64,000 nucleotides of DNA from Prochlorococcus sp. MIT 1307 (GTDB taxonomy: Bacteria > Cyanobacteriota > Cyanobacteriia > PCC-6307 > Cyanobiaceae). The translations under genes and the position numbers were made by a program. This document shows positions 5,596-39,508 of the stretch, in pieces. The notes beneath the pieces are model-generated. The model worked only from the letters and a program-made list of their open reading frames with translations. It made no database searches and was not told the origin of the DNA. Numbering within the stretch: position 1 is the first letter of the stretch; the number at the start of each line of letters is the position of its first letter. The stretch is taken from positions 1,736,001-1,800,000 of the forward strand of contig NZ_CP139301.1 in assembly GCF_034092395.1 (NCBI RefSeq), written 5' to 3'.

Positions 5596-5782
5596 GGTTT
5601 CTGAGACGTGAATAGGCTCGGATAGTTTTGCCTTGGGCATTTTTGGTGCTTAAAAGCTTGTTTGCCGATTTAGGCCTAAGTTCACAATCGAAAGACAATC
5701 AAACATCCTCGGCTTTTGCCCCTCCATTAGTCAAGATTTAATTGAACAAACCTTCTTTATCCGGCGCAATGGAGTTGCTCTT

Positions 5783-6112
5783 ATGAGTCCTAGGAAGACC
5801 TACATTCTCAAGCTATATGTGGCAGGAAATACTCCAAATTCCATGCGAGCATTAAAAACATTGCGTGACATTTTAGAAACGGAATTCCGTGGGGTTTATG
5901 CTTTGAAAGTTATTGATGTACTGAAAAATCCACAATTGGCTGAGGAAGATAAAATTCTTGCTACGCCAACATTGGCAAAGATTCTCCCCCCCCCTGTTCG
6001 AAGAATAATTGGTGACTTGTCTGACCGCGAAAGGGTTTTGATAGGTCTGGACCTTCTTTATGATGAGTTATCAGATGCCGATCTAAGCTCTGTAATCATT
6101 GATGAGTCCTGA
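5783..6112 (+). CDS. kaiB: Circadian clock protein KaiB
   Basis: KaiB is the fold-switching clock protein that binds the CI ring of phosphorylated KaiC. In the full clock it also sequesters KaiA and displaces SasA in favour of CikA. At 109 residues it is slightly longer than the 102-residue Synechococcus protein. It is nearly identical in its conserved parts, such as [32 protein letters not shown] and [16 protein letters not shown]. The ATG is fixed by that N-terminus. Upstream, between rplU and kaiB where kaiA normally lies, only 142 (or 187) bases remain. The acidic C-terminal tail (ELSDADLSS) is variable in the family. It is presumably co-transcribed with kaiC, 95 bases downstream. Confidence 0.97.
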
Positions 6113-6207
6113 GATGAGGACATTTAGAGGCAGATTCTTAAGTCAGGCTGTGAAGCTAGTGGCTAAGTAGTTATTTGTCTCTAGCGTTTCACCATTAGAT
6201 AGTGAAT

Positions 6208-34373: not shown

Positions 34374-34773
34374 TTAAATCTCTGAAGCCAAATGAATCCA
34401 ATAAATAAATTCTAGATGACTTTTAAGAGGTATTACCAAAGCTCTGCCAATAATCTGAGTGGTATTAAATTAATTTTTCTATTGTTTGGTATTGACATTT
34501 TTCAGGTGATTCTAAGGGATAGTTTTTCTGGGGCAAACAAATATATCTAGATTCCATACTGTTTATATGGTTATGATTTTGTTTACACTTAACAAGAGAG
34601 TTTTTAGGAGTGGCATTATGCTTTTTCAAAGCCTGAGCTGGTTCTTTATGGCTTTAGACCTTTGATTATCGCCTAAATTTTTAGCCTTAGATGAGCAAGC
34701 TTTACGTTTGAGTGCTCATTTTAGACTTTACGTGTATTCATAGTGTTATTAATTGATAAGTCTTTTTAGCGAG
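34374..34773. other. 400-base AT-rich gap
   Basis: No long ORF is present. A 15-codon ORF (34618-34665, ATG preceded by AGGAG nine bases upstream) encodes a short hydrophobic peptide, MLFQSLSWFFMALDL. Its reality is uncertain. A TTGACA hexamer occurs near 34491, but no matching -10 element is convincing. Confidence 0.5.
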
Positions 34774-35076
34774 ATGGACGAAACCAAAAGCTCTTCAGGG
34801 AAAGGCATGGGTGCTAGTCAAGGAAGTCAGAAATTAGGTGGGGAGCAGTCCCAAAAATCCAAAAAAAAGAAATGGACCAATAAATCAGGTGCGCCATCTG
34901 ATGGCAGAGAGGTACTTCTTAAAGTAGGTGGTCTGGAGTACAAGGCTCCAGGGAGAAGGCAAAGAGTTGTTCTGGGAGGAATTGTCTTAGGGGGAAATTT
35001 AATCCTGGTTTTGGCTGTAATCCTGTATTTCTATAATCCCTCATTTAAAGAGTTTATAATTCATGTTGGGAAGTAA
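34774..35076 (+). CDS. Small protein with C-terminal membrane anchor, 100 aa
   Basis: From the ATG at 34774 it has 100 residues. Residues 1-45 are Ser/Gly/Lys-rich and look disordered (KSSSGKGMGASQGS). There follows a short conserved-looking VLLKVGGLEYKAPGRRQR, then one membrane span near residues 68-88 (VLGGIVLGGNLILVLAVILYF) and a short tail. This is a tail-anchored layout with a basic cytosolic N-terminus. I cannot name the family. It is followed by a perfect AT-rich hairpin, perhaps its terminator. Confidence 0.6.
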   Translation: MDETKSSSGKGMGASQGSQKLGGEQSQKSKKKKWTNKSGAPSDGREVLLKVGGLEYKAPGRRQRVVLGGIVLGGNLILVLAVILYFYNPSFKEFIIHVGK

Positions 35077-35864: not shown

Positions 35865-36080
35865 ATGTATCGCTGGATACCTTTTGGGATGTCTGAAATG
35901 AGTTTGCAGAGCCCTCAATCTGAGAAGAGAGAAAACGTTCCACTTCAACGTAAAACCACATTGAAGTGGAGCAGTGATGGAGAATTGACTTCGGTTGATA
36001 TGACGAGAATTCTCGATAAGCTTGCCAAGTCTGAACTTACAGAATGTGACTTGGCATGCAAATTGGATGAACTGGCTTAA
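35865..36080 (+). CDS. Small acidic hypothetical protein, up to 71 aa
   Basis: A 71-residue ORF; starts at Met9 (35889) or Met12 (35898) are equally plausible. The N-terminal part is polar (QSPQSEKRENVP), and the C-terminal 30 residues (TSVDMTRILDKLAKSEL, then DLACKLDELA) look like a pair of amphipathic helices. Codon use looks less random than in neighbouring spacers. No family was recognised. It is followed by the small anchored protein at 36158. Confidence 0.5.
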   Translation: MYRWIPFGMSEMSLQSPQSEKRENVPLQRKTTLKWSSDGELTSVDMTRILDKLAKSELTECDLACKLDELA

Positions 36081-36157: not shown

Positions 36158-36397
36158 ATGAGAATATTAATTGCAGCGACTTGTCTTTTGGTTATTAGCT
36201 TTTCGGCTTATTTGTTTTTAACAGGATACCGTTCAGCATTTGAAGCTGATCAAGCATGTCATGCTGAAAAGTGGACTTTATATGAGGATAACTCTAGTTT
36301 TGGCTGTGATCATGACTTAGAGACGAATCAGTGGATCTTGTATGAAGTATTACCCAATCACAAGCCTTCTAAAGTGCTGAAACGCTTTCACTATTAA
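36158..36397 (+). CDS. Small exported or anchored protein with internal repeat, 79 aa
   Basis: A 79-residue protein with an N-terminal hydrophobic segment (AATCLLVISFSAYLFL) that may be a signal peptide or anchor. The mature part has two similar blocks, KWTLYED and QWILYEV, each preceded by a Cys/acid-rich stretch (ACHAEKW; GCDHDLETNQW), suggesting an internal duplication and a possible disulfide. It ends with a basic tail. The function is unknown. It lies in the gene-poor region. Confidence 0.55.
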   Translation: MRILIAATCLLVISFSAYLFLTGYRSAFEADQACHAEKWTLYEDNSSFGCDHDLETNQWILYEVLPNHKPSKVLKRFHY

Positions 36398-37165: not shown

Positions 37166-37318
37166 CTAATGTCTTTTGTACCACCTTGATGTTTTTTTTG
37201 ATCTTTTGACCATACGAGAGCTTTTCCCTGAGAGGTAATCTGCCTCTGCATTGTTGAACCAAAAGCCAATAATTGAAATGATTATAACTATAAATAGAAG
37301 CCAAATATAGTTTTCCAT
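37166..37318 (-). CDS. Small single-span membrane protein, 50 aa
   Basis: A 50-residue protein with one membrane span near the N-terminus (IWLLFIVIIISIIGFWF), then a polar, strongly basic tail (SRMVKRSKKTSRWYKRH). The ATG is preceded by a good ribosome-binding site (GAGGAAG, six bases upstream), better than most ORFs here, which supports it. The frame is open further upstream without a better start. Its layout, an N-terminal anchor with a basic C-terminus, suggests a membrane-bound partner of nucleic acid or lipid, but this is conjecture. Confidence 0.55.
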   Translation of the reverse strand: MENYIWLLFIVIIISIIGFWFNNAEADYLSGKSSRMVKRSKKTSRWYKRH

Positions 37319-37596
37319 ACGCAACTTCCTCTGGCTTTTTGTTAGGTCTTGCACAACGAAGTATATTCATTCAACACTGAAATGCTCGTTCTTGTAAGGA
37401 GCCTTATTTATTTAGCTACTTCACTCAAGAAAAATGTCATTACTTTAATGGGCTTCTTACTCTGTTCCTAGCTATCATCTTATTAGAAGCATGCTGTCTT
37501 CCTATGGCTAGTTGTTTCGGATTATTTTCTATTTGTAATTGCCGTGGTCGCATAATCTAATCTTTGCTAGGAACGGTTATATCGATTGCAAAAACA

Positions 37597-37710
37597 ATGG
37601 ATACGATCTACCCCACTCTTACTGGAATAGCTTTACCTTTGCTTTCAATTTTAGGACTTGGTGAGCTACTCAATGAATTAAAACCTTCTCAGAATCGCAA
37701 GATTAGTTAA
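37597..37710 (+). CDS. 37-residue membrane peptide upstream of NdhF-like fragment
   Basis: A 37-residue ORF, MDTIYPTLTGIALP at the start, with one hydrophobic stretch (about 9-26) and a polar, basic end (KPSQNRKIS). Its stop codon overlaps the ATG of the next gene (TAATG), a layout typical of coupled genes. The length and layout resemble tiny subunits of photosynthetic and NDH complexes, but no family match is certain. It is too small to be sure from sequence alone. Confidence 0.5.
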   Translation: MDTIYPTLTGIALPLLSILGLGELLNELKPSQNRKIS

Positions 37711-38147
37711 TGTCTTCACTTTTGGACATCGCTTGGTTAATACCTCTTGCTCCGTTTATAGGAGCATTTGCTATTTGGCTTTTGCTTATTAGTTTTAATA
37801 GGACAATGAATAGGCTCAGCAAGCCTGTTTCTTACTTTCTTATTACTTGTGTGGCCGTGTCAACAGGCTTAAGCTTTGCCTTATTTGAGAAGAATCTATC
37901 AGGGCAGCTTTTTGATTTAGATTTAAATATAGCGAGTAAAACATTCCACTTTGGTTTATATGTAGATAGCCTTGCAAGCATAACTTCGACAATATGTAGT
38001 TCAATTATTTTGGTGATTATGATTCTTTCCTATTACTTGCTAAATAGGAATAAGGGGTATGTACTTTATTTTTCCTGTCTAGGTGCTTTATGCGGTTCAT
38101 TGCTTTCCTTTATTTTTAGTGGGAGCTTATTTCATAGACTCTTTTAA
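37710..38147 (+). CDS. NdhF/NuoL-like N-terminal fragment, 145 aa
   Basis: The 145-residue protein matches the N-terminal part of the NdhF (NAD(P)H-quinone oxidoreductase chain 5) family. Matching parts are IAWLIPLAPFIGAF, SFNRTMNRLSKPV and VDSLASITSTICSSI, and NKGYVLYFSCLGAL as in the 'GYV-FF' turn. Four membrane spans are expected (about 5-27, 40-58, 85-110, 115-138). NdhF is about 600-700 residues, so some 80% is missing. The sequence beyond the stop does not continue the protein in any frame. It is either a stable truncated gene or a decaying remnant; the full ndhF must lie elsewhere. Confidence 0.68.
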   Translation: MSSLLDIAWLIPLAPFIGAFAIWLLLISFNRTMNRLSKPVSYFLITCVAVSTGLSFALFEKNLSGQLFDLDLNIASKTFHFGLYVDSLASITSTICSSIILVIMILSYYLLNRNKGYVLYFSCLGALCGSLLSFIFSGSLFHRLF

Positions 38148-38272: not shown

Positions 38273-39508
38273 GTGCTAGTGCCTAGTAATACAGCTTCAG
38301 ATCTGCCATCACGAATAGCCCTTGTTCATGAATGGTTGTCGCCACAATCTTTTGGGGGAGCAGAGAAAGTTGTTCAGGCAATAGATCAACTTCTCTTAAA
38401 TTTTGGCTCCCAACCTGAATTGTTTGCATTGGTAGATGGTGAAAGCAATAGGGTTGGAAGTTGGTTGTTTGGTAGGTCGATCAAAACAAGTTTTATCCAG
38501 AAACTTCCTTTTGGAATTAGTCATGTACAAAATTATTTGCCACTTTTGCCTTTTGCGATTGAGCAATTTGAATTTAGTGAATACCCATTAGTTATCAGCA
38601 GTAGTCATCTTGTGGCAAAGGGTGTGCTTACTTCCCCTGACCAGCTTCATGTGAGTTACGTACATACGCCAGTGAGATATGCATGGGATCAGATGCATGT
38701 TTATTTGAAGAGTGCTTCTAAAACAAAACCTTGTTTACAGCCCCTTATCCGTTGGCAGCTGCATAAGCTGAGGCAATGGGATCAATTGAGCGGTGCAAGA
38801 CCTGACTATTTAATTGCCAACTCTCGGTTTACGGCTAAAAGAATATCCCGTTATTGGGGGCGCAAATCAGAAGTTATTCATCCACCAGTTTCAGTGGAAC
38901 GTTTTCGTTGGGATAAATCAAGAGATGATTTCTACCTTTGCCTATGCAGGCTAGTGCCTAATAAGAGAGTTGATTTGGTCGTCAGGGCATTTAATCAATT
39001 GAAACTTCCTTTATTGATTGTTGGAGATGGCCCTGAAAGAAAGTATTTGGAGAGATTGGCGGGTCCAACAATTCGCTTTTTAGGTCGTCAAACGTCTCTT
39101 CAAGTAGAAGAATTAATGGCGCACTGTAAAGCCTTTGTTTACGCGGGATTGGAGGACTTTGGTATTGCACCAGTAGAAGCAATGGCAGCAGGGGCACCAG
39201 TTATTGCTTTTGGGCAAGGGGGTTTGTTGGATTCGGTTCGGTGTGCAGCAAGAGGAGATTCGTCCCCTACTGGTGTTCTCTTCCCTGATCAAACGGTTTC
39301 CTCACTTTTTGCCGCAGTTGATTGGTTTGAAGAAAATAAGATTTGGGAAAAATTGCCGGCTGAGGTAATACGTCAATGGGCTGAGCGTTTTAGCAAAGAG
39401 GTCTTCGACTTTTACTTTGAGGCTGCATTACGAAAAGCCTGGCAAAGGCATCGTGGTTCCTGTGACGTTAAAGCGAGTGGCCCTGGGAACGTCTCACAGC
39501 TTCTTTAA
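38273..39508 (+). CDS. Family 4 glycosyltransferase
   Basis: A 411-residue GT-B glycosyltransferase of group 1 type. The N-terminal IALVHEWLSPQSFGGAEKVV is the acceptor-side glycine-rich loop. The donor-binding half has VSVERFRWDKSRDDFYL, LIVGDGPERKYLERLAG, and the E-x7-E motif in EDFGIAPVEAMAAGAPVIAF. It probably adds a hexose in exopolysaccharide or LPS O-chain synthesis. The start is a GTG. A sugar-phosphate transferase follows 136 bases downstream. Confidence 0.9.
   Translation: MLVPSNTASDLPSRIALVHEWLSPQSFGGAEKVVQAIDQLLLNFGSQPELFALVDGESNRVGSWLFGRSIKTSFIQKLPFGISHVQNYLPLLPFAIEQFEFSEYPLVISSSHLVAKGVLTSPDQLHVSYVHTPVRYAWDQMHVYLKSASKTKPCLQPLIRWQLHKLRQWDQLSGARPDYLIANSRFTAKRISRYWGRKSEVIHPPVSVERFRWDKSRDDFYLCLCRLVPNKRVDLVVRAFNQLKLPLLIVGDGPERKYLERLAGPTIRFLGRQTSLQVEELMAHCKAFVYAGLEDFGIAPVEAMAAGAPVIAFGQGGLLDSVRCAARGDSSPTGVLFPDQTVSSLFAAVDWFEENKIWEKLPAEVIRQWAERFSKEVFDFYFEAALRKAWQRHRGSCDVKASGPGNVSQLL

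What the first reader, a model, noticed from the sequence alone, without database searches (positions are those of the whole stretch)
37597..38147. NdhF N-terminal fragment coupled to a 37-residue membrane peptide
The 145-residue gene covers only the first four spans of an NdhF-type protein, has a clean stop, and keeps recognisable motifs. A tiny membrane peptide overlaps its start (TAATG). If conserved, this may be a separate subunit or regulator of an NDH complex rather than a decaying gene. NdhF normally needs all its spans to pump.
Basis: partly seen in the sequence, partly recalled or inferred. Interest (0 to 1): 0.55.

Follow-up and report, generated by a model that had tools for sequence, protein, structure and literature searches.

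The report
Pump-less NdhF fragment conserved in Prochlorococcus
Prochlorococcus, a very abundant photosynthetic microbe, carries an extra, cut-down copy of a proton-pump protein that kept its shape and one likely binding surface but lost the pump, and natural selection has preserved it as a separate gene.

Summary
In detail: a 145-aa ORF (37710-38147) matches the first four spans of NdhF, and a 37-aa membrane peptide (37597-37710) overlaps its start. It is not decay. A full-length NdhF1 lies elsewhere; stand-alone relatives occur in 41 of 44 near-complete genomes of one related genus; none of 79 named loci read is interrupted; median dN/dS is 0.22. None of 88 cyanobacteria sampled outside the family has one. 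Longer ~300-aa copies, up to 57% identical to NdhF1 and without the TM5 glutamate, suggest stepwise truncation; those of one genus already carry the peptide, three others do not. AlphaFold gives the NdhF TM1-4 fold. The first cytosolic loop is the most constrained part. NdhF1 keeps its motif in 20 of 23 genomes without the paralogue but 4 of 17 with the short one, while the rest of the domain is equally conserved. In NDH-1MS the equivalent loops bind CupA, which the paralogue-bearing genomes tested lack. My reading: NdhF's docking platform split off from its pump. Association with NDH-1 is inferred, not shown.

The parts
37597..37710 (+). pep37: 37-aa single-span membrane peptide, stop codon overlaps the next start by one base (TAATG)
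   Evidence: profile hits directly upstream of the fragment in 30 of 79 loci and before the ~300-aa copies of G029 and G120; only weak Pfam/NCBIfam matches and no PDB family
37710..38147 (+). NdhF-N (my name): 145-aa stand-alone NdhF N-terminal domain, TM1-TM4
   Evidence: AlphaFold pLDDT 88.6, pTM 0.81; fold match to NdhF; conserved relatives
37791..37832 (+). codons 28-41, first cytosolic loop SFNRTMNRLSKPVS (TM1-TM2), the most conserved part
   Evidence: equivalent loop of NdhF3 holds Arg37 and Tyr41, which contact CupA
38037..38072 (+). codons 110-121, second cytosolic loop (TM3-TM4), family consensus KLpRrkGYVRYF
   Evidence: equivalent loop of NdhF3 holds Glu114, which contacts CupA
38273..39508 (+). 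neighbour, probably not part of the system: GT4-type glycosyltransferase
   Evidence: absent between the fragment and cobD in 7 of the 44 loci with cobD downstream, where the fragment is kept

Best explanation
The gene is a duplicated, truncated NdhF1 that kept the four N-terminal spans and dropped the proton channel. It most likely works as a small membrane docking platform: the four spans anchor it in the thylakoid (or plasma) membrane, and its two positively charged cytosolic loops bind a partner that in related picocyanobacteria is bound by the same loop of NdhF1. Shown by sequence: origin from NdhF1, loss of the TM5 glutamate in the longer copies, purifying selection, conservation of the loop, and weaker constraint on the same loop in NdhF1 of genomes with the short copy. 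Predicted: the fold. Inferred: that the long form came first, that the loop is a binding site, that the protein sits at or near the distal end of NDH-1L, and that pep37 is its single-span companion (as NdhP and NdhQ are for NdhD1/NdhF1).
For: Selection: 79 of 79 loci uninterrupted; median dN/dS 0.22 over 597 overlapping pairs with dS 0.05-1.2, and 0.35 as summed dN over summed dS in 29 disjoint pairs. Presence: 41 of 44 genomes at least 98% complete in genus g18. Origin: the ~300-aa copy of G029 is 57% identical to NdhF1 at best, 29% to an NdhF3/F4-type protein. TM5 FWELVG reads FWLLVG, VYVALA, LYFLII and FWVLLG in the four long copies compared. Fold: VIA-align Z 17.0 to 6khi_F, 2.1 A over 143 residues. 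Constraint shift, on 36 short copies not found by the loop pattern: all 36 keep T32, R35, L36 and P39. Same positions in NdhF1: 96-100% in 23 genomes without the paralogue; 35, 65, 71 and 76% in 17 with the short copy; rest of domain 0.875 versus 0.880; motif 20 of 23 versus 4 of 17; the loop window shows the second largest drop of 132 windows. Precedent: CupA binds the cytosolic face of NdhF3 with Arg37, Tyr41 and Glu114, which lie in the two equivalent loops.
Against: No physical link to NDH-1 is shown. CupA/CupB-type proteins are absent from the 11 paralogue-bearing genomes tested, so the known partner of those loops is not the partner here. In HL-type loci the gene has no pep37 and other neighbours, in two of four inspected an AOX/PTOX-like gene tail to tail. 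Three of the four long copies compared have no pep37 within 1.5 kb upstream. The sequence outside the loops diverges fast (28-59% identity to the window copy), unusual for a core subunit. The weaker NdhF1 loop could have another cause; 4 of 17 paralogue-bearing genomes still keep it. The genomes share ancestry, so the Fisher value 7e-5 overstates independence, and 29 of the 36 copies were the best matches to the window copy.
Confidence: 0.42

Rival explanations
1. Decaying pseudogene: a broken ndhF copy still readable by chance.
For: It lacks about three quarters of NdhF, and longer copies exist in some lineages. Some disjoint pairs at low dS have dN/dS of 0.38-0.54, so constraint outside the loops is moderate.
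Against: 79 of 79 loci uninterrupted; median dN/dS 0.22; kept in different neighbourhoods and where the two downstream genes are missing; loop residues kept in 36 of 36 copies.
Confidence: 0.03
2. Cap or competitor: the fragment occupies the NdhF1 site on NdhD1 and gives an NDH-1 with one pump fewer, or delays assembly of NDH-1L.
For: It keeps the NdhF TM1-4 fold and is pump-less; NdhD1, NdhF1, NdhP and NdhQ form an NDH-1L-specific module (PMC7021789 and PMC6992706, passages read).
Against: The membrane-embedded parts, which would have to match NdhD1, are the more variable parts, and the cytosolic loops are the conserved ones. The long helix of NdhF1, which covers a lipid at the NdhD1-NdhF1 junction, is absent.
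Confidence: 0.2
3. Neofunctionalised membrane protein with no NDH contact, for example in another plastoquinone-linked or antenna complex.
For: Different neighbourhoods in different lineages, including tail to tail with an AOX/PTOX-like gene (L123, L155) and near a chlorophyll-binding-type small protein and a 2Fe-2S protein (L149); fast divergence outside the loops.
Against: Retention of the NdhF1 loop together with its relaxation in NdhF1 suggests a function inherited from NdhF1.
Confidence: 0.32
4. pep37 is only a translational leader for the fragment, with no role as a protein.
For: TAATG or near overlap; not found before the HL-type copies, which are kept without it, nor before three of four long copies; weaker in some LL-type loci and shortened in one, L077.
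Against: Its sequence is conserved (L28 invariant; M1, G20, L24 and E27 at 90% or more in the 13 copies of A3) and stand-alone paralogues occur elsewhere, including two more in this genome.
Confidence: 0.25

Closest known systems
NdhF1 (NDH-1L antiporter-like subunit; T. elongatus 6hum/6khi/6l7o chain F)
   Same: Sequence (E 1.6e-20) and predicted fold (Z 17.0) of the N-terminal four spans; best match of the ~300-aa copies.
   Different: 145 instead of about 670 aa; no TM5 glutamate, no channel, no long C-terminal helix.
NdhF3 with CupA/CupS (NDH-1MS, 6tjv)
   Same: The two cytosolic loops that contact CupA in NdhF3 are the conserved loops here; fold match Z 15.8.
   Different: Full-length subunit; CupA/CupB-type proteins absent from 11 of 11 paralogue-bearing genomes tested; the window copy is 27% identical (E 0.088) to an NdhF3/F4-type protein.
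NdhP and NdhQ (single-span NDH-1L subunits)
   Same: pep37 is also a predicted single-span peptide of about 40 aa beside an NdhF-type partner.
   Different: No match of pep37 to these chains in PDB searches at E up to 10, so no membership is claimed.

Membership tests
NdhF/NuoL-type antiporter-like subunit | homology and fold of the N-terminal TM1-4 | tested here: met
NdhF/NuoL-type antiporter-like subunit | full length with both channel repeats | tested here: not met
   145 aa with stop; ~300 aa in the longer copies
NdhF/NuoL-type antiporter-like subunit | TM5 glutamate (FWELVG in NdhF1) | tested here: not met
   the short copy ends before it; replaced in the four ~300-aa copies compared
NDH-1 complex subunit | present in purified NDH-1 | not testable with these tools
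   needs proteomics
NdhF3-like CupA dock | CupA/CupB (TIGR01964) encoded in the genome | tested here: not met
   0 of 11 paralogue-bearing genomes (9 short, 2 long form), 5 of 5 genomes without it that were tested; the control rings in Synechococcus elongatus
NdhP or NdhQ (for pep37) | sequence homology to the solved NdhP/NdhQ chains | tested here: inconclusive
   no such hit, but 37-aa peptides give little power
pseudogene | absence of selective constraint | tested here: not met

The most novel reading that the evidence does not exclude
Prochlorococcus split NdhF in two: the pump stayed in NdhF1, and the cytosolic docking platform became a separate four-span subunit (with a single-span peptide in many low-light-type lineages) that recruits an unknown cytosolic or photosystem partner to the NDH-1 membrane arm, in a lineage where the genomes tested lack the CupA/CupB-type NDH-1 partners. 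It would be a Prochlorococcus-specific NDH-1 component.
Probability: 0.28. Interest if true: 0.8.

Novelty: new variant of a known kind. Interest (0 to 1): 0.6.

Why it matters
Prochlorococcus is among the most abundant phototrophs. A widely kept truncated NdhF paralogue whose loop is held constant while NdhF1's own loop drifts would be a clear case of a pump subunit giving rise to a pump-less docking subunit, apparently in two steps (~300 then ~145 aa), and would point to an unknown partner of this loop, possibly an NDH-1 partner, in this genus.

Tried and rejected
Pseudogene: rejected. Origin from NdhF3/F4 or NdhD: rejected; the long copy of G029 is 57% identical to NdhF1 at best, 29% to the NdhF3/F4-type protein and 28% to the NdhD-type protein of G034. 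CupA/CupB as partner: not found in the 11 paralogue-bearing genomes tested. Viral carriage: 19 stretches in viral contigs matched the loop pattern, none was a relative. pep37 as a known family: only weak matches, namely Pfam B12D (complex I MLRQ subunit) in 2 of 24 members, best E 0.0088, DUF2973 in 1, E 0.083, NCBIfam Myrrcad in 4, best E 0.031; nothing meaningful in the PDB. Convergent short copies in other cyanobacteria: none at E <= 1e-6 among the 88 non-family genomes of a 97-genome class sample. pep37 before all long copies: not so; found before that of G029 and G120 and beside that of G071 (places), not before L136, L138 or L107. No tree of the 145-aa domain was built; origin rests on BLAST. 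dN/dS pairs from about dS 0.78 up range from 0.14 to 0.82 and are not relied on.

Bias: the 80 named loci were found with a pattern inside the first loop, so their loop conservation is circular, and A4 shares that bias for loop 1. The comparison uses 36 copies found by protein or profile search; 29 of them were the best matches to the window copy. The column table lists 35 loops because the search expression missed L004, which has Arg at position 38. In one search I grouped 24 genomes as 'PRO short', not all with a verified short copy; the 17 are the verified ones. My note guessed that an HL neighbour was NdhS-like; Pfam shows DUF3104. In one search most short rows report one stop inside the match; for G017 this is the gene's own stop codon, the last codon of the match (L155); for the others I infer the same from the position.

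Literature: in the listings no title or abstract start describes this gene; some searches listed part of their hits (10 of 19, 15 of 34, 5 of 6). One search found no paper with the tags PMM0335 or PMM0337 (that PMM0336 is the MED4 PTOX is recalled, not from a call). Papers were seen as search listings and, for PMC12038448, PMC6992706, PMC7021789 and PMC6981117, as passages; none was read whole.

Full report
What is there. The window holds a 37-aa ORF (37597-37710) and a 145-aa ORF (37710-38147) on the plus strand that share one base in TAATG. The larger matches NdhF residues 1-145 (NCBIfam NF005626, 77.5 bits, below that full-length model's cut-off; T. elongatus NdhF1 E 1.6e-20; Pfam gave no NdhF match). 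The same genome (2.03 Mb, one contig) has a full-length NdhF frame of 675 codons elsewhere, 37% identical over this part.

It is a conserved gene. A search of 400 genomes of the family, a profile search of 38 chosen genomes and a scan of named genomes find stand-alone relatives. In the window's own genus 6 of 8 genomes have it; the two without are 64% and 74% complete. In one search, 13 of 38 genomes have a short copy (open frame 149-178 codons), 3 have a ~300-codon copy (296-304) and 22 have neither; all 38 have a long NdhF frame. Of the 96 relatives in the named scan the best 80 were kept; one contig is labelled Pelagibacteraceae, the other 79 Prochlorococcus. I read 79 loci (L103 is cut by a contig end): none is interrupted, 77 are 129-167 aa and two are 300 and 302 aa. 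The twenty 129-aa ones are counted from ATG; in the six I inspected a conserved upstream GTG would add 13-15 residues. In the genus of G017 (which I take to be the high-light group), 41 of 44 genomes at least 98% complete carry it; the three without are drafts in 20-50 contigs. In the genus of G029, 3 of 5 have the ~300-codon version, both near-complete genomes included. In a class-wide sample of 97 genomes the second, shorter copies are all in this family; the 88 others have at most one match at E <= 1e-6, each in a frame of 656 codons or more. Clade names attached to unnamed G genomes are my inference.

Selection. Over 597 non-independent pairs with dS 0.05-1.2 the median dN/dS is 0.22; 29 disjoint pairs run from 0.05 to 0.82 (the three highest at dS near 0.8-1.1, but also 0.54 at dS 0.21), and summed dN over summed dS is 0.35. 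In 44 of 80 named loci the gene stands before cobD and ilvC; in 7 of those the glycosyltransferase and sugar transferase that otherwise stand between are missing while the gene is kept. In other lineages it sits in different neighbourhoods.

Origin. The 301-aa copy of G029 is 57% identical to NdhF1 over its first 284 residues at best, 29% to an NdhF3/F4-type protein. The four long copies compared are 290-302 aa. The TM5 motif FWELVG of NdhF1 reads FWLLVG, VYVALA, LYFLII and FWVLLG in them. If the long form is ancestral, which the higher similarity of the G029 copy to NdhF1 suggests, the channel glutamate was lost before the cut to ~145 aa. In G029 and G120 the long copy has a pep37 in front with the same TAATG overlap, and G071 has a match beside its long copy. 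All three belong to one genus; the long copies L136, L138 and L107 have none within 1.5 kb upstream. So the pairing may predate the short form, with losses elsewhere, but this is not settled.

The peptide. A profile of 13 copies finds it directly upstream of the fragment in 30 of 79 loci (E <= 0.014), and anywhere in the genome, paralogues included, in 54 of 300 family genomes. Stand-alone paralogues occur elsewhere, two of them in this genome, with the consensus of one span followed by a G-[LIV]-x-E-L-x-K-E-like stretch. Three genomes of genus g10 also match (G243 and G280, G009), and none of these three showed a second NdhF-type copy (G243 and G280, G009). HL-type loci show no such peptide upstream. 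Family searches gave only weak matches.

Structure. AlphaFold on 62 sequences gives pLDDT 88.6 and pTM 0.81: four long helices with a beta hairpin between the second and third. The best solved matches are NdhF chains: Foldseek E 3.2e-6 to 6l7o_F, TM-score 0.82 on the query; VIA-align Z 17.0 to 6khi_F at 2.1 A over 143 residues, with the aligned range in the chain running to residue 279, so the last residues are matched elsewhere in NdhF. Positive charges concentrate in residues 28-41 and 110-121, and these are the most conserved stretches (for the first loop this alignment is biased, see below). With the orientation of NdhF (recalled) these are the cytosolic loops.

The constraint shift. The named loci were found through a pattern in the first loop, so I compared 36 short copies found by protein or profile search instead; 29 of these were the best matches to the window copy. 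All 36 keep T32, R35, L36 and P39. In NdhF1 of 23 genomes without the paralogue (or 26) the same positions are 96-100% conserved; in NdhF1 of 17 genomes with a verified short copy they are 35, 65, 71 and 76%. The rest of the domain is equally conserved in both groups (0.875 and 0.880). The motif is kept in 20 of 23 versus 4 of 17 (Fisher 7e-5, not corrected for shared ancestry), and the loop window shows the second largest conservation drop of 132 windows. The three genomes with a long copy keep the NdhF1 motif in 2 of 3 under the stricter pattern. T. elongatus NdhF1 lacks the motif, so it seems to be a picocyanobacterial feature.

How it may work. In NDH-1MS the soluble CupA binds the cytosolic side of NdhF3, with Arg37, Tyr41 and Glu114 of NdhF3 at its active site (PMC6981117, passages). 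The NdhF3 sequence printed places Arg37-Pro38 and Tyr41 in the TM1-TM2 loop and Glu114 in the TM3-TM4 loop, the same two loops. CupA/CupB-type proteins are missing from 11 of 11 paralogue-bearing genomes tested and present in 5 of 5 tested without it. So the fragment looks like the docking half of an NdhF without its pump, and the partner is not CupA. That it binds near NDH-1L, with pep37 in a role like NdhP or NdhQ, is inference.

Verdict. I file it as a new variant of a known kind: an NdhF-derived protein that fails two defining features of the antiporter subunit (full length and TM5 glutamate) but keeps its N-terminal fold.

Noticed in passing
L155:5228-5662 (+) and 5659-6177 (-); also L123: In two of four HL-type loci inspected (L123, L155; not L113 or L118) the fragment gene lies tail to tail, overlapping by 4 bases, with an AOX/PTOX-like gene; Pfam PF01786, E 4e-17, was run on the L155 copy.
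   Followed up: partly
G000:C1:1727353-1727451 (-) and G000:C1:93667-93762 (+), outside the window: Two stand-alone paralogues of the 37-aa peptide in the window's own genome, part of a single-span peptide family without a convincing family match.
   Followed up: partly
37166-37354 (-): 62-aa minus-strand ORF with a hydrophobic stretch; tblastn matches (E <= 1e-4) upstream of the pair in 5 of 80 named loci; no strong Pfam or NCBIfam match.
   Followed up: no
34753-35076, 35865-36080 and 36158-36397 (+): Three small ORFs (107, 71 and 79 aa) upstream of the pair that recur in many related loci; Pfam and NCBIfam, run on the 107- and 79-aa ones only, gave no match above a cut-off.
   Followed up: no
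L220 (G028:C7:7000-11000): A pep37 paralogue stands between ORFs that by eye resemble the window's 71-aa and 79-aa genes, so the small-gene cluster may be linked with the peptide family.
   Followed up: no
L058, L061, L062, L096, L098, L100, L106: The glycosyltransferase and sugar transferase between the fragment and cobD are missing in these seven loci.
   Followed up: no
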